This document shows positions 12,388 through 19,375 of a stretch of DNA of 38,187 nucleotides, one piece after another; the stretch's first letter is position 1, and each line of letters begins with the position of its first letter. The stretch is from Sulfurimonas sp. (GTDB lineage: Bacteria > Campylobacterota > Campylobacteria > Campylobacterales > Sulfurimonadaceae). The notes beneath the pieces were generated by a model. That model had not been told where the DNA came from, made no database searches, and worked only from the letters and a program-made list of their open reading frames with translations. The stretch covers positions 1-38,187 of the forward strand of contig JADGEZ010000021.1 in NCBI GenBank assembly GCA_016744115.1, in the 5' to 3' direction. Made by a program: the position numbers and the translations under genes.

Positions 12388-12394
12388 TATAGTG

Positions 12395-14230
12395 ATGAAA
12401 TTTATGAAGTACCTTTTTCTTTTAATACTCTTAAACTCTTCTGTTCTATCCAAAACAATAGATATAAGTAAAATATCAAAAAAAATAGATTTATTGCCAA
12501 AAAGTTACCTTTATATTGACAATAACATAAAAGAACAAAATTTTGAGAAAATAAAAAAACAATCTTTTAAGAAAAATGATAAAACAATAATAAATTTTGG
12601 TATAAATAAAAATAAAGCCGTATGGATAAAATTTACCTTAGAAAATAAGAGTTTATTAGACAAGAGAGTTATACTAGAATATGTAAGTTCTATAACAAGA
12701 AAGATTGAACTCTATGAGAACGATGCTGTATACATAGATGGTCTCTCACAAATAAACAAAAATAGACACTCACTTAAACCAAGTTTTATTATAAACCTAA
12801 CTCCAAATAAAAAGCAAGTTTATTATATCAAAGCACAGTCAAATGGAGCTTCTTTATCTACAAAACTCAATCTTTGGGAAGAAGAAAAGTTTACAAAACA
12901 TTTTATTTATCAAAACAATATAACAAGCCTTTTTTTCGGGGCAATATTTATTTTATTTGTTTATAACTTATTTATTTATATTTTTACAAAAGATAAGGTT
13001 TACTTATACTATATATTCTATATTGCCTTTGTATCTTTACATTTATCTATTTATGTGGGCTATGCGAGTTTATACCTATTTGATCAAAATCAGATTGACT
13101 TTGTCATGGAGCAGAAATTTTTAATCGTCTCATTGGTTATGTACTTTATAGTGGAGTTTACTGTTAGTCTTTTAAACCTTAAGAGATTTAAAAAATTTCA
13201 TAGCTTTATATATGTTTGCTCAATAATGCTCATTTTCTTTAGTCTTATAAACTTCAATCTCTTGATATTATTTTTTATCCCTATTGTATTGCTTTTGTAT
13301 AAAGCTTCTTATTTAGCATTTGTAAAAAAAGAAGATATTTCGTATATATATCTAATTGCATGGTTTCCGATTTTTTTTATATTTGTAGGATGGATTTATT
13401 TTTCAACATCAAAAAATATTTTTAATGAAGCTTATGAAATTTTTCCATATATTTTACAATTTGTTCATCTTTTTGAAGCTATAACATTTTCTATTGCTTT
13501 AGCATATCGAATTAAGTTACTACAACAAACAAAAGAAAAACTTAATACACAACTTATATATGAACAACAAAACAGAGAAATCAACTTACATGAGCAAGTA
13601 AAAGACAAAACAAAACATCTCAACTTAGCCTTAGAAGAAAAAGTGCTTCTAATGCAAGAGCTTCACCATAGAGTAAAAAACAATCTACAAATGGTAAATT
13701 CTTTACTAAGATTGCAAAGTTTAGAAATTGTAAATGATGAAACAAAAGAGATATTTACACAAGCACAAAATCGTATAAAAGCGATTAGTTTTTTACATGA
13801 GCTTTTGTATAAACAACATAATATAACTTCTATAAGCACAAAAGAGTATTTTATAAAACTCATTGATGAAATGATTAAAACTTATGGCACAAAAGCTATA
13901 ATAAGAACAAATATAACTTGCGATATAAAACTAGAAAATATTATCTATTGTGGTTTAATTTTAAATGAGCTTGTGTTAAACTCTATAAAATATGCCTTTA
14001 GTAATGTAGAAAATTCTCATGCACAAATAGACATAATCTTAAAAAAGCAAAACAAATTATGTATGTTTATAATCAAAGATAATGGTGTAGGTTTTACTCA
14101 AAGCAAACAAAACAAAACCTTAGGTTTAACTCTAGTAAATACTTTAGTGAAAAATCAGCTAAAAGGGGATATTATCATCAAATCAGAAAAAGGAACGCAT
14201 ATAGAGATGTCATGGTTAGAAAATGGATAA
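12395..14230 (+). CDS. Membrane sensor histidine kinase, 7TM-DISM plus HisKA_2 type
   Basis: A 611-residue sensor with a signal peptide (about residues 1-19) and a periplasmic beta domain of the DISM extracellular type (about 20-165). A block of seven hydrophobic segments (about 172-375) follows, starting at the typical L-F-F-G-A-I-F-I-L-F-V-Y-N-L-F. A linker coiled coil precedes a HisKA_2 kinase core. The phosphoacceptor region L-H-H-R-V-K-N-N-L-Q lies at about 423-432, and the ATPase has N-E-L-V-L-N-S and D-N-G-V-G-F, with G-L-T-L-V-N-T as the G2 box. DISM domains are thought to sense carbohydrates or other small ligands; the ligand here is unknown. Its stop overlaps the response regulator start by 8 nt. 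Confidence 0.9.
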   Translation: MKFMKYLFLLILLNSSVLSKTIDISKISKKIDLLPKSYLYIDNNIKEQNFEKIKKQSFKKNDKTIINFGINKNKAVWIKFTLENKSLLDKRVILEYVSSITRKIELYENDAVYIDGLSQINKNRHSLKPSFIINLTPNKKQVYYIKAQSNGASLSTKLNLWEEEKFTKHFIYQNNITSLFFGAIFILFVYNLFIYIFTKDKVYLYYIFYIAFVSLHLSIYVGYASLYLFDQNQIDFVMEQKFLIVSLVMYFIVEFTVSLLNLKRFKKFHSFIYVCSIMLIFFSLINFNLLILFFIPIVLLLYKASYLAFVKKEDISYIYLIAWFPIFFIFVGWIYFSTSKNIFNEAYEIFPYILQFVHLFEAITFSIALAYRIKLLQQTKEKLNTQLIYEQQNREINLHEQVKDKTKHLNLALEEKVLLMQELHHRVKNNLQMVNSLLRLQSLEIVNDETKEIFTQAQNRIKAISFLHELLYKQHNITSISTKEYFIKLIDEMIKTYGTKAIIRTNITCDIKLENIIYCGLILNELVLNSIKYAFSNVENSHAQIDIILKKQNKLCMFIIKDNGVGFTQSKQNKTLGLTLVNTLVKNQLKGDIIIKSEKGTHIEMSWLENG

Positions 14231-14909
14231 ATTAAATATCTTGATTGTTGAAGATGAAACTATCATTGCCTTAGATCTAAAATACACTATCGAATCTTTT
14301 GGACATTCAGTATGTGATATTGCATCTAATCCACAAGAGGCTATACGCTATGCTAAAGAGTTTAAACCCCATCTTGTTTTTATGGATATTAATCTTGGGA
14401 GTTCTATAAATGGGATAGAGTGTTATAAAATCATCAAAAAAGAACAAGATCTTAAAGTGATCTATTTAACAGCTTATACAGATGACAAAACAATTGATAG
14501 TGCGATAGAGACAAACCCTTTAGCGTATTTGATAAAACCATTTAACGATGATGAGCTCAAAGCCGTCTTAAAATTAATGACTTTTAAAGTAAAGCAAAGT
14601 AATCGCGAGTATAAGGATGAAGAAATAATTATAGAGTTAAACAAAGATTATTACTACGACATACAAAAAAATGCACTTTTCTTTAAAGGGAGTCCAATAA
14701 GACTATCCAAAAATGAAAAAATTCTTTTAAACCTTCTTTTAGAAGCAAAAGGAAATCCACTTTCCTACGCTGATATAGAATGCAATATTTGGACAGACTG
14801 CATAGTAAATGGCGACACTTTAAGAGCTTTGGTGTATAGATTAAGAGCAAAATTAAAATTTGACCTCATACAAACCATCCCTTCTTTTGGATATAAACTT
14901 ATTTTTTAA
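14223..14909 (+). CDS. OmpR-type response regulator paired with the DISM sensor kinase
   Basis: A 228-residue two-domain regulator. The receiver has the acidic pair E10-D11, phosphoacceptor Asp55 in V-F-M-D-I-N, Thr83 and Lys105 in L-I-K-P-F. The C-terminal winged helix (about 130-228) has the OmpR/PhoB pattern L-S-K-N-E-K-I-L-L-N-L-L-L and ends Q-T-I-P-S-F-G-Y-K-L-I-F. Pairing an OmpR-type output with a HisKA_2 kinase is less common than with a HisKA kinase, but the 8-nt overlap makes them partners. A degenerate copy of its 3' end lies at about 17009-17067, beyond the restriction-modification genes. Confidence 0.93.
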   Translation: MDKLNILIVEDETIIALDLKYTIESFGHSVCDIASNPQEAIRYAKEFKPHLVFMDINLGSSINGIECYKIIKKEQDLKVIYLTAYTDDKTIDSAIETNPLAYLIKPFNDDELKAVLKLMTFKVKQSNREYKDEEIIIELNKDYYYDIQKNALFFKGSPIRLSKNEKILLNLLLEAKGNPLSYADIECNIWTDCIVNGDTLRALVYRLRAKLKFDLIQTIPSFGYKLIF

Positions 14910-14925
14910 AAGCTCATAAATATTG

Positions 14926-14941
14926 TATGCCCTATTACTTA
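14926..14941 (-). repeat. 16-bp dispersed repeat, inverted copy 2
   Basis: On the minus strand this reads TAAGTAATAGGGCATA, identical to the first 16 bases of the copies at 11457 and 17507. It lies in the 39-bp gap between the convergent response regulator and methyltransferase genes. Confidence 0.55.
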
Positions 14942-14948
14942 CTTATTA

Positions 14949-16142
14949 TTATCCTTTGAACATATTAAATATTTCTACGGATGGTGTTTTTAAAATATTC
15001 ATACCTGCATGATTAATATCTGTTTCAAATAATCCACTGTGATTTGTTTGTATAAGAATAGATTTTTTTGATTTTTTGATTTTCATTGCTTTAGCTAAAA
15101 GAGAAGCAGATTCCCTTAAAGTTTCTTTTTCTTTTTGCACTCTCACTAGAATAGGAGTACCTTCATATAATTCCATAAGTATTGCATCAATACCTTTATT
15201 TCTTTGCACTGCATTAAATTTTAAGCCATCAAGTAATTCTAATGCTTTCTTATCAGCACTTAAATAGGAGTCTCTACCTTTTTTTAATAGCTTTGATTCA
15301 GTTTTTATAGGGTTTTGTATTCTACTTTTTGACAATTCAATAGCTTCACTTGATTTATCTATTCCAATATAATTTCTATTTAATAGTTTGGCAGCTACAC
15401 ATGTTGTACCACTACCACAAAATGGGTCTAAAACAATATCATTTTTATCAGTAGTAAGTTCAATAATTCTCTCTAATAGCAGCAATGGTTTTTGTGTTGG
15501 ATAACCAACTCTCTCTTTTGCTTTTGGATTCAAATATGGTATATCCCAAACATCATTCAGGGGAACACCTTTCTTTTTATCTCCAAGTAAAACATTTCCT
15601 TCTTTATCTGTGTCATAAATTGATTTATTATCAGCATCTCTCGTTCTTCGTTGTAATATTTGATCAACATTCGTAGTCTCTGAATAAGGAGTGAACACTG
15701 TATTAAATTTAAAGTTTTTAGTTTTTGAGTAAAAATATATATTTTGATGGCTAGGGAGTAATCCCTTTTTTGAATTTGACCAGCGTTTATAGCTCCAAAT
15801 AATTTCAGACTGAAAATTCTTCTCTCCAAATACTTTATCTAGGACAGCTCTAATAATATGTTCTCCACTTTTATCACAATGCACAAATATTGAACCATCA
15901 TCTCTTAAAAGCTGATGCATTAATTTTATGCGTTCATATAAAAAGTGAGCATAGCCCTCACTACTTCCCCATGTATCCTCAAAACTAAACTCTTTTTTTC
16001 TATCTTTACTTTTTAGAGTATGTTTTTTTTCTGTGAAAAATGGAGGGTCTAAATATATTAAGTTAATAAAGTTTTTTTCAATTTCTTCCATTTTATCAAT
16101 ACAATCTCCTGCAAGAAAATAATTAGCTATATTTTTCATCAA
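14949..16142 (-). CDS. DNA methyltransferase of a type II restriction-modification system (N6-A or N4-C)
   Basis: A 397-residue amino-methyltransferase of the beta class. The catalytic motif D-P-P-F (residues 32-35, in I-Y-L-D-P-P-F-F) comes first, then a target-recognition region (about 60-210). The AdoMet-binding motif D-P-F-C-G-S-G-T is at residues 239-246. D-P-P-F/Y enzymes methylate the exocyclic amino group of adenine or cytosine. A C-terminal extension of about 120 residues (270-397) has no motif I recognise and may add specificity or dimer contacts. Its ATG overlaps the stop of the endonuclease gene by 4 nt, so the two are translationally coupled. The recognition sequence cannot be read from the gene; an ApaLI-like partner would suggest GTGCAC. 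Confidence 0.9.
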   Translation of the reverse strand: MMKNIANYFLAGDCIDKMEEIEKNFINLIYLDPPFFTEKKHTLKSKDRKKEFSFEDTWGSSEGYAHFLYERIKLMHQLLRDDGSIFVHCDKSGEHIIRAVLDKVFGEKNFQSEIIWSYKRWSNSKKGLLPSHQNIYFYSKTKNFKFNTVFTPYSETTNVDQILQRRTRDADNKSIYDTDKEGNVLLGDKKKGVPLNDVWDIPYLNPKAKERVGYPTQKPLLLLERIIELTTDKNDIVLDPFCGSGTTCVAAKLLNRNYIGIDKSSEAIELSKSRIQNPIKTESKLLKKGRDSYLSADKKALELLDGLKFNAVQRNKGIDAILMELYEGTPILVRVQKEKETLRESASLLAKAMKIKKSKKSILIQTNHSGLFETDINHAGMNILKTPSVEIFNMFKG

Positions 16143-16918
16143 GAAAGTTCTCTATTATCCGCTATTTCAGTTAATATTACTTTTAAATCATAGCCACTTA
16201 TTTTTGTCAAGTAGTCCCATGCATCATCTCCAGCATAATATTCTCCTTGAACACCTTTATATAAGGTTTTAAGTGTCTCTTGAATTTTAATAGTTTGTTC
16301 TCTTTGTGGATAGTAAAACATTACACGAACTGGATTATATCCATGAGCTTTTATAACTTTTACTCTTGTATGCTCTTTTGTGATGTGGTCTCCATCTGTT
16401 GTAGCATCTCTCCATTTTAATTCAACTGCATCATTAGCATTTAAAAAGTCAATTTCAAAAGTTTTTGGTTTTTTACCCTCTGTATTCTCAACAATCTTTT
16501 TCCCTCCGTTGCTATTTGAAAAGAAAATACATAATGATGCAGCTTCTTCTAAAAAAGAACCTGCATATTTATATAAAAATCGTCCAGTATTTTGATACTC
16601 ATCTATTAACATACCTTCTGTATCTGACATACCAAGTACTCTATAGATTAAATAGTGAGAGTTGTCATCTTTTTTCATTTCCTTTTTTCTTGAAGTGATT
16701 TTCAAATCTAAATTTCTTGTGTACTCATCTGCAATATTTTGTATTTTTGATTTTAAAAGGCTAAGGCAACTTCCATCTGCTATAGCATCATCAATTTCTT
16801 TTCTTTGATAATCATATATCGCTTGAATTAAATCATTTTTTTTCTTTTTTTTAATATTTATATTTAAAGTTTCGCAATAGCTTTTTAGCTCTGGCATTTT
16901 TAATTGTTCAATTTTCAT
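16139..16918 (-). CDS. ApaLI-like type II restriction endonuclease
   Basis: A 259-residue protein. Residues about 1-37 look like a SAP/Rho-N-type small DNA-binding helix pair (M-P-E-L-K-S-Y-C-E-T-L...K-K-N-D-L-I-Q-A-I). The C-terminal half carries a PD-(D/E)xK pattern: E155-I-D157, then E166-L-K168, followed by the W-R-D-A-T-T-D-G-D-H-I-T-K-E-H-T-R block that I associate with ApaLI-like endonucleases. It lies upstream of, and overlaps, the cognate methyltransferase. Having the nuclease first in the operon is the less usual order. Family assignment is from memory of the motif block. Confidence 0.8.
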   Translation of the reverse strand: MKIEQLKMPELKSYCETLNINIKKKKKNDLIQAIYDYQRKEIDDAIADGSCLSLLKSKIQNIADEYTRNLDLKITSRKKEMKKDDNSHYLIYRVLGMSDTEGMLIDEYQNTGRFLYKYAGSFLEEAASLCIFFSNSNGGKKIVENTEGKKPKTFEIDFLNANDAVELKWRDATTDGDHITKEHTRVKVIKAHGYNPVRVMFYYPQREQTIKIQETLKTLYKGVQGEYYAGDDAWDYLTKISGYDLKVILTEIADNRELS

Positions 16919-16942
16919 TTATAAATTCCTTTGACTATTGTA

Positions 16943-16948
16943 ATTATA
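16943..16948 (-). promoter_or_regulatory. -10 box of the restriction-modification operon
   Basis: On the minus strand TATAAT lies 24 nt before the endonuclease ATG, with an AAAGGAA ribosome binding site between them. No palindromic controller-protein site is obvious, and no small HTH controller gene accompanies the pair. Confidence 0.5.
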
Positions 16949-17008
16949 GCAAGTTGATGGAATAAAAAAACTTAGTTAAGTGGTCTTGACAATGGAGGAT
17001 ATTATAGA

Positions 17009-17067
17009 AAATTATACGCTTAAAACCTCCAAACCATCCCCACATTTGGGCATAAACTTATTTTAAA
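17009..17067 (+). pseudogene. Relic of the 3' end of a response regulator gene
   Basis: From 17030 one frame reads Q-T-I-P-T-F-G-H-K-L-I-L, against Q-T-I-P-S-F-G-Y-K-L-I-F at the end of the intact regulator (14871-14905). At DNA level 30 of 35 bases match (17030-17064), and weaker similarity extends upstream to about 17009. There is an in-frame stop at 17021 and no upstream domain. The relic and the intact gene flank the restriction-modification operon in direct orientation. Confidence 0.6.
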
Positions 17068-17070
17068 AAA

Positions 17071-17097
17071 AATCGTCACAAGAATCGTCACAAGAAT
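17071..17097. repeat. 12-bp tandem duplication
   Basis: AATCGTCACAAG is present twice in tandem (17071-17082, 17083-17094) and followed by a partial third start (AAT). It sits in the gene-free stretch just after the response-regulator relic. Confidence 0.7.
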
Positions 17098-17135: not shown

Positions 17136-17496
17136 ATGTTAAAGCAAACTAAATATAAAACGATTGTAATGTCAATAGACTTCTTGCAAAACTCCTATAT
17201 GCCTCAGAGTGATAAGAAGTGCTAAGATTGTGTAAAACAAATTTTTATGCCTAGCCTAAGCTAAGGATAAAATATTTTTTTATGCAAGCTTGGCACTTCT
17301 TATCACTTCCGTAGGACACTTTATAGAGAGCTTTACTTGAGCGTAAATAACCCCAACCGTAGCTTTGGCTACGCTTGAGAATATTTGCCTTGATTAAAAC
17401 TCTCTATAAAGTGCTGAGACATATAGGAGTTTTGCAAGAAGTCTAATAAGAGTAAGTCTCTTAGCTATCACTTTTGGAGGGAATAGTAGTTTCTAA
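17136..17496 (+). pseudogene. Short signal-peptide-like frame interrupted by the inverted-repeat element
   Basis: ATG 17136 is preceded by GGATAAAG and opens M-L-K-Q-T-K-Y-K-T-I-V-M-S. It is cut by the element at 17177. Joining the two flanks with one copy of the 3-bp AAT keeps the frame open as I-R-V-S-L-L-A-I-T-F-G-G-N-S-S-F and then stop. The joined peptide looks like a signal sequence, similar in style to that of the lipoprotein downstream, but ends after 29 residues. It is probably a broken exported-protein gene; the stretch 16919-17640 otherwise contains no gene. Confidence 0.4.
17177..17444. mobile_element. 268-bp MITE-like element with 31-bp terminal inverted repeats and two internal arms
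   Basis: The ends 17177-17207 and 17414-17444 are inverted repeats matching at 30 of 31 positions (AGACTTCTTGCAAAACTCCT at the left tip). The element is flanked by AAT on both sides, a possible 3-bp target duplication; TA/TA is an alternative reading. Inside are two further stems that abut the termini: 17208-17222 with 17293-17307 (15 bp) and 17317-17330 with 17400-17413 (14 bp). Smaller hairpins lie in each arm (17243-17255/17260-17272 and 17358-17363/17368-17373). There is no transposase, so it would be moved in trans by a related insertion sequence. The whole could fold as a three-way junction. Confidence 0.75.
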
Positions 17497-18588: not shown

Positions 18589-18972
18589 ATGATAGAAAAT
18601 GAAGTAACAAAAGAAAATATAAATAAATTAGTGCTTAAGTTTTACGCTAAAGTTATCAAAGATGATCTTATTGGACCGATCTTTATAGATGTATTAGGAA
18701 AGGACTTAAAAAGTGATATTTGGAAAACACATATCAAATTATTAACTGATTTTTGGGCATCTATTGCATTAGGGGACTCTACTTATGCTGGTAATCCTTT
18801 TGCACCCCATATTAAACTACAAGACAGCTTAAGTATTAAAGCTTTTGAGCAATGGTTAAAGCTTTTTTTTCAAACTCTCAACTCTATTTATGAACCCCAA
18901 ATTGCTCAACAATTTCTTGCTAGAAGTAAAAATATTGCAGGTAATTTCATACGCAATCTAAATCTTTCTTAA
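18589..18972 (+). CDS. Group III truncated haemoglobin (first of a tandem pair)
   Basis: This 127-residue globin resembles Campylobacter jejuni Ctb. Tyr19 (position B10, which stabilises bound ligand), F-W at about 55-56, the proximal haem ligand His74 in F-A-P-H-I-K-L and Trp89 (G8) in F-E-Q-W-L-K-L-F are all present. Ctb has been linked to oxygen and nitric oxide physiology under microaerobic conditions; the role here is inferred. The ribosome binding site is weak (AAAGAAA). Only 10 nt separate it from the second globin, so they form an operon. Confidence 0.9.
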   Translation: MIENEVTKENINKLVLKFYAKVIKDDLIGPIFIDVLGKDLKSDIWKTHIKLLTDFWASIALGDSTYAGNPFAPHIKLQDSLSIKAFEQWLKLFFQTLNSIYEPQIAQQFLARSKNIAGNFIRNLNLS

Positions 18973-18982
18973 AGGAAAAAAT

Positions 18983-19375
18983 ATGCTTGCACAAACAGTC
19001 GATAGACAAACCGTACATAAAATGATTCATCATTTTTATGCAAAACTCCTTGAGGATAAGCTTGTGGGTCATTACTTTATAAATTCATTAGGCGACAATT
19101 TAGAAAATGAAAGGTGGAAAGATCATCTAACAACTTTAGATAACTTTTGGCTTAAAATGATGACAGGAAAAGGGGCTTATGGTGGACACCCTTTTCCTCC
19201 TCATGCATTTTTAGGTGAGATGTACATTGAAACATTTGAGCGTTGGTTAGAGCTATTTAAAGAAGCATTAAATCAGTTTTTTATTCCAAAAATAGCTGAT
19301 AAGTTTTACAAAAAAAGTGAGATACTAGCCGCACAATTTATGTATAACCTAGACATAGGCAATGAAGAAGACTAA
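18983..19375 (+). CDS. Group III truncated haemoglobin (second of a tandem pair)
   Basis: A 130-residue paralogue of the preceding gene with the same key residues: Tyr19 (B10), F-W at 55-56, proximal His74 in F-P-P-H-A-F-L, and Trp88 (G8) in F-E-R-W-L-E-L-F. The two proteins are clearly related but far from identical, so the duplication is old or one copy was acquired. Position about 30 is His (G-H-Y-F) where the first has Pro (G-P-I-F). A strong AAAGGA ribosome binding site precedes the ATG. A 7-bp stem GAAGACT/AGTCTTC (19367-19390) at the 3' end could be a weak transcript end, though it lacks a T tract. Confidence 0.9.
   Translation: MLAQTVDRQTVHKMIHHFYAKLLEDKLVGHYFINSLGDNLENERWKDHLTTLDNFWLKMMTGKGAYGGHPFPPHAFLGEMYIETFERWLELFKEALNQFFIPKIADKFYKKSEILAAQFMYNLDIGNEED

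What the first reader, a model, noticed from the sequence alone, without database searches (positions are those of the whole stretch)
14871..17067. Restriction-modification operon bracketed by direct copies of a response-regulator 3' end
The end of the intact regulator (14871-14905) and a relic at 17030-17064 share 30 of 35 bases and the same peptide pattern. They flank the restriction-modification genes in the same orientation. This looks like entry of the module with duplication of the target, as has been proposed for other restriction-modification systems, or replacement of a second two-component pair of which only the tail remains.
Basis: partly seen in the sequence, partly recalled or inferred. 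Interest (0 to 1): 0.6.

Follow-up and report, generated by a model that had tools for sequence, protein, structure and literature searches.

The report
Restriction module beside decayed regulator remnant
A horizontally acquired DNA-cutting defence system sits next to a two-component gene pair; the matching "direct repeat" on its far side is most likely the leftover tail of a second, decayed regulator module cut off by an insertion-sequence scar, not a duplication made by the defence system, so this is ordinary genome debris.

Summary
In detail: 14871-14905 and 17030-17064 share 30 of 35 bases (46/63 over 14849-14911/17008-17070), in the same orientation, on either side of an ApaLI-like REase plus DNA-methylase operon. 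The main interpretation, R-M entry with target duplication, is not supported. DNA homology to the same operon in two Sulfurovaceae genomes ends at 14946 and at 16932-16958, so the mobile unit reaches neither repeat. Its right edge is fused, at a shared TTGAT, to a truncated IS3-family right end (about 16953-17006); the relic starts beyond that. Its left edge lies 4 bp from a solo terminal repeat of a high-copy MITE-like element. The relic runs on into a GTCACA-N6-GTCACA direct repeat and a lipoprotein pseudogene carrying another MITE-like insertion. A homologous box plus intact lipoprotein start lies elsewhere in the genome; in four same-genus genomes such a box precedes the related histidine kinase, and in two the related regulator is directly followed by a lipoprotein gene. 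No relative with an empty site is held, so replacement is inferred. Low interest.

The parts
12392..14230 (+). Histidine kinase: 7TMR-DISM sensor, HisKA_2, HATPase
   Evidence: Pfam
14223..14909 (+). Intact response regulator (receiver plus OmpR-type winged helix); its 3' end is the left copy of the repeat (14849-14911)
   Evidence: Pfam; repeat
14926..14941 (-). Solo terminal repeat (TAAGTAATAGGGCATA) of a roughly 268-bp MITE-like family, outer end facing the R-M unit 4 bp away
14949..16142 (-). N6/N4 DNA methyltransferase; first ATG of the frame overlaps the REase stop codon
   Evidence: PF01555
16139..16918 (-). ApaLI-like restriction endonuclease
   Evidence: PF09499 RE_ApaLI
14946..16958 (-). 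Extent of the R-M unit by DNA homology to a Sulfurovum genome (L180, 85%); 14946-16932 against another Sulfurovaceae genome (L179, 81%)
16953..17006 (+). Truncated right end of an IS3-family element, fused to the R-M unit at a shared TTGAT (16954-16958)
   Evidence: 94% to the C61 copy; 10 matches to the end motif in the genome; transposase of that copy matches NF033516
17008..17064 (+). Relic: 3' tail of a second response-regulator gene, with an in-frame stop
17075..17092 (+). Direct repeat GTCACA-agaatc-GTCACA; the same kind of box lies just upstream of the related histidine kinase in four same-genus genomes
17136..17177 (+). Start of a decayed lipoprotein gene (MLKQTKYKTIVMSI...), homologous to an intact start near G000:C27:46008 (L030)
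   Evidence: 80% DNA identity over 98 bp; interrupted by a MITE-like element
17178..17443 (.). 266-bp inverted-repeat MITE-like element with ATA on both flanks, inserted in the lipoprotein pseudogene; many copies in the genome
17507..17522 (+). Second solo terminal repeat TAAGTAATAGGGCATA

Best explanation
The relic is the 3' tail of a second, paralogous response-regulator gene that once stood directly upstream of its own target gene: regulator tail, GTCACA-N6-GTCACA box, lipoprotein start. That module decayed: an IS3-family end sits in the regulator and a MITE-like element in the lipoprotein gene. An ApaLI-like R-M unit of about 2.0 kb came in horizontally and was joined, by illegitimate recombination at a TTGAT microhomology, to the truncated IS3 right end; the body of the IS and whatever lay before it are now absent. 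On its left the unit abuts a solo MITE terminal repeat just after the intact regulator. R-M and repeat are neighbours, not cause and effect. Shown: the repeat, the unit limits, the IS3 end, the shared TTGAT, the box, and the lipoprotein pseudogene with its MITE. Inferred: that a whole second regulator (and perhaps kinase) existed, the recombination mechanism, and the order of events.
For: The R-M unit ends at 14946 and 16932-16958 by homology to L179/L180, whose outer flanks are unrelated to the window. The IS3 right end at 16953-17006 has close kin elsewhere in the genome, truncated at various places. Relic, box and lipoprotein start follow each other, and box plus start recur at C27 with 80% identity. 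Across the ATA-flanked MITE site the signal-peptide frame continues (MLKQTKYKTIVMSIRVSLLAITFGGNSSF, compare MLKRTVYKKIAISLAASMLLVACGGSSSGG of L030) and then stops. Regulator followed directly by a lipoprotein gene is seen in two relatives, L100 and L102. A GTCACA-N6-GTCACA box stands 40-70 bp upstream of the related kinase in G002, G028, G031 and G079. Divergence between the copies is uneven, 12/22 against 30/35 (Fisher p 0.014; permutation scan p 0.044), and only 2 of 17 differences are at second codon positions. The close full-length form of the REase is in no other of 135 same-genus genomes; three others carry a more distant one at 57-61%.
Against: No sequence of a second regulator upstream of the tail survives, so a tail-only duplication is not excluded. 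The relic is closer to the intact regulator than to any other tail compared, which also fits a local duplication. The test of whether relic differences fall at family-variable residues was not significant (p 0.27). The intact kinase's own promoter region has no such box. No empty-site relative is held.
Confidence: 0.72

Rival explanations
1. R-M insertion with long target duplication: the R-M unit inserted at the regulator's 3' end and copied about 60 bp of target to its other side.
For: Direct orientation, flanking position, and the relic being closest to the intact regulator. The mechanism has been proposed for R-M systems (PMC3031569 citing Nobusato et al. 2000; PMC4978471).
Against: The repeats do not abut the R-M unit: about 35 bp with a MITE terminal repeat on the left, an IS3 end of about 50 bp on the right. 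The copies are 73% alike, while the IS3 end wedged between is about 94% like its genomic kin and the MITE 100% like others, so a duplication made with R-M would have to be older than its neighbours. Divergence is uneven.
Confidence: 0.08
2. Local tail-only or partial tandem duplication of the regulator, made before and independently of R-M, for example through IS3 activity.
For: The relic is nearer to the intact regulator than to any other tail (42/57 against at most 32/57). The homology stops at the IS3 end on one side and near the stop codon on the other.
Against: The relic is followed by its own box and lipoprotein gene, as expected for a native module. The first 22 bases have diverged to 55%.
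Confidence: 0.12
3. Relic, box and lipoprotein start arrived together with R-M from another genome as one imported block.
For: They are adjacent and R-M is horizontally acquired.
Against: In L179 and L180 the homology ends at the R-M unit and the flanking genes differ. The box plus lipoprotein start has its paralogue in the window's own genome.
Confidence: 0.05
4. The repeat is chance or only a short conserved protein motif.
For: The end of OmpR-type regulators is conserved.
Against: 30/35 against at most 25/35 in simulations, and a DNA match extending over 63 bp.
Confidence: 0.02

Closest known systems
ApaLI-type type II restriction-modification system (PF09499 REase with an N6/N4 DNA methylase)
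   Same: Both proteins and gene order; DNA 81-85% identical to two Sulfurovaceae copies and about 70-75% to many marine Proteobacteria
   Different: Nothing notable except the location; recognition of GTGCAC was not tested
R-M insertion with long target duplication (Nobusato et al. 2000, as cited in PMC3031569)
   Same: R-M genes with direct repeats on either side
   Different: Repeats do not abut the unit, are unevenly diverged, and an IS3 end lies between
IS-linked R-M movement (PMC3031569)
   Same: R-M unit joined directly to an IS end; 1-3 bp of shared sequence at the joint also marked one class of products there
   Different: Only one truncated IS end was found here, and no second IS copy at the left edge
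7TMR-DISM/HisKA_2 kinase with OmpR-type regulator pair
   Same: Intact pair at 12392-14909 and related pairs in other genomes of the genus
   Different: Best same-genus regulators are only about 46% identical, so this pair has no close orthologue held

Membership tests
R-M insertion with long target duplication | Direct repeats abut both ends of the inserted R-M unit | tested here: not met
   The unit ends at 14946 and 16932-16958; repeats end at 14911 and start at 17008, with a MITE terminal repeat and an IS3 end between
R-M insertion with long target duplication | The empty site in a relative has a single copy | not testable with these tools
   No relative with this kinase-regulator pair at the syntenic place; relic DNA in no other of 135 same-genus genomes
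R-M insertion with long target duplication | The two copies derive from one sequence and diverge evenly | tested here: inconclusive
   73% overall; 12/22 against 30/35, p 0.014, permutation scan p 0.044
ApaLI-like type II R-M system | REase matches RE_ApaLI | tested here: met
   PF09499, E 2.6e-83
ApaLI-like type II R-M system | Adjacent amino-methyltransferase gene | tested here: met
   PF01555, E 7.2e-60
ApaLI-like type II R-M system | Cleaves and methylates GTGCAC | not testable with these tools
   62 GTGCAC sites in the genome, a count that decides nothing
Composite IS transposon carrying R-M | IS copies on both sides | tested here: inconclusive
   IS3 end only on the right; nothing IS3-like found at the left edge, but no complete IS3 copy with a left end was available for comparison

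The most novel reading that the evidence does not exclude
The R-M unit captured the outer end of an IS3-family element by microhomology and now uses it as part of its own upstream region, while the decayed neighbouring module left its operator behind as an orphan binding site for the surviving paralogous regulator.
Probability: 0.1. Interest if true: 0.35.

Novelty: new member of a known kind. Interest (0 to 1): 0.2.

Why it matters
It shows that direct repeats around an R-M system are not enough to call insertion with target duplication: the limits of the mobile unit, taken from homologous copies, and IS or MITE scars between unit and repeat should be checked first. It also points to a candidate operator (GTCACA-N6-GTCACA) for a family of sensor-regulator pairs.

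Tried and rejected
Synteny by plsY in 16 same-genus regions gave no locus with this pair in the stretches held, so no empty site; kinase and regulator searches gave only distant homologues. Relic DNA across 135 genomes found only the window, its own intact regulator, the C27 box and a few weak short matches. PDB sequence search for the REase: none. Family-variability test of relic residues: not significant. Idea that the two solo MITE terminal repeats (14926, 17507) carried the block as a composite: rejected, because their outer ends face inwards and such solo repeats are common in this genome. Idea that the C61 IS3 end also abuts a regulator tail (LVYRLLGYKLKK): weak, with no tblastn support. 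GTGCAC avoidance: nothing decisive. The 2010 survey of mobile R-M forms was not held.

Full report
What is there. The window belongs to a 2.05-Mb, 74-contig genome (contig C41). A histidine kinase (12392-14230; 7TMR-DISM, HisKA_2, HATPase) and an OmpR-type response regulator (14223-14909) are followed on the opposite strand by a DNA methylase (14949-16142) and an ApaLI-like REase (16139-16918). The finding's repeat is exactly as described: 30/35 between 14871-14905 and 17030-17064, extending to 46/63. Simulated sequences with the window's dinucleotide transitions reach at most 25/35 (60 runs).

Limits of the R-M unit. The REase is found in many phyla, but in the window's genus the close full-length form is in no other of 135 genomes, and three carry a more distant one. 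DNA homology to a Sulfurovum genome (L180, 85%) runs from 14946 to 16958, and to another Sulfurovaceae genome (L179, 81%) from 14946 to 16932; outside these limits the flanks are unrelated. So the horizontally moving unit is about 2.0 kb and includes neither repeat.

What borders it. On the right, from about 16953 to 17006, is the right end of an IS3-family element, 94% like the copy in contig C61 whose transposase matches NF033516. The end motif has ten matches in the genome, and the fragments are truncated at various distances. The R-M unit and the IS end share TTGAT at the joint (16954-16958), which suggests illegitimate recombination (inference). On the left, 4 bp from the unit, is a solo terminal repeat (TAAGTAATAGGGCATA) of a MITE-like family with 76 terminal-repeat matches at up to one mismatch.

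What the relic is. Immediately after the IS end comes the relic (KLYA*NLQTIPTFGHKLIL), then GTCACAAGAATCGTCACA at 17075-17092, then the start of a lipoprotein gene at 17136. Box plus gene start is 80% identical over 98 bp to an intact lipoprotein locus at C27:45943. The window's lipoprotein gene is broken by a 266-bp inverted-repeat element with ATA on both sides; read across the empty site the frame continues as a signal peptide and then stops. A GTCACA-N6-GTCACA box stands just upstream of related histidine-kinase genes in four same-genus genomes, G002, G028, G031 and G079. In two same-genus genomes the related regulator is directly followed by a lipoprotein gene. This fits a decayed regulator-lipoprotein module.

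Testing the duplication reading. A target duplication should abut the unit and diverge evenly. Neither holds well: the repeats are separated from the unit by mobile-element scars, identity is 12/22 in the first part and 30/35 in the rest (Fisher p 0.014; permutation scan p 0.044), and second codon positions carry only 2 of 17 differences. A further test, whether the differences fall at residues that vary in the family, was not significant (p 0.27). The relic is nearer to the intact regulator than to about 30 other tails, so the two regulators were probably close paralogues, and a tail-only local duplication remains possible.

What could not be tested. No held relative has this pair at this place: plsY and its downstream genes are conserved, but in the 16 regions read the upstream side holds other genes or runs off the contig. 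The contig passes through a MITE at which many other contigs of this assembly end, so a misjoin at 17178-17443 is possible; the matching ATA flanks and the continuing signal-peptide frame argue against one.

Verdict. Target duplication by R-M is not supported. A decayed second module next to an R-M unit joined to IS debris is the best reading (0.72). Literature for the duplication model and for IS-linked R-M movement was read in PMC3031569 and PMC4978471.

Noticed in passing
window 17178-17443; many other loci, e.g. L016, L017, L022: A MITE-like 266-bp inverted-repeat element (GACTTCTTGCAAAACTCC ends, 3-bp NTA flanks in several copies) is present in about 30 whole or partial copies, and many contigs end inside it.
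   Followed up: partly
window 11457, 14926, 17507; G000 genome-wide: TAAGTAATAGGGCATA is the terminal repeat of a second, roughly 268-bp MITE-like family; there are 76 matches at up to one mismatch, and many are solo rather than paired.
   Followed up: partly
window 17075-17092; L030, L029; G002, G028, G031, G079: GTCACA-N6-GTCACA direct repeat upstream of 7TMR-DISM kinase genes in relatives and of secreted or lipoprotein genes in this genome: a candidate operator for this regulator family.
   Followed up: partly
G000:C61 (L029): An IS3 right end followed by a peptide resembling a shortened regulator tail (LVYRLLGYKLKK), a GTCACA box and a secreted-protein gene, like the arrangement in the window; the regulator match is weak.
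   Followed up: partly
G000, ten places: IS3-family right ends survive as orphan fragments of about 38-160 bp, each cut at its inner side, while bodies of the element are mostly gone.
   Followed up: partly
window 18589-19375: Two adjacent globin-like genes (identified by eye from the sequence only).
   Followed up: no
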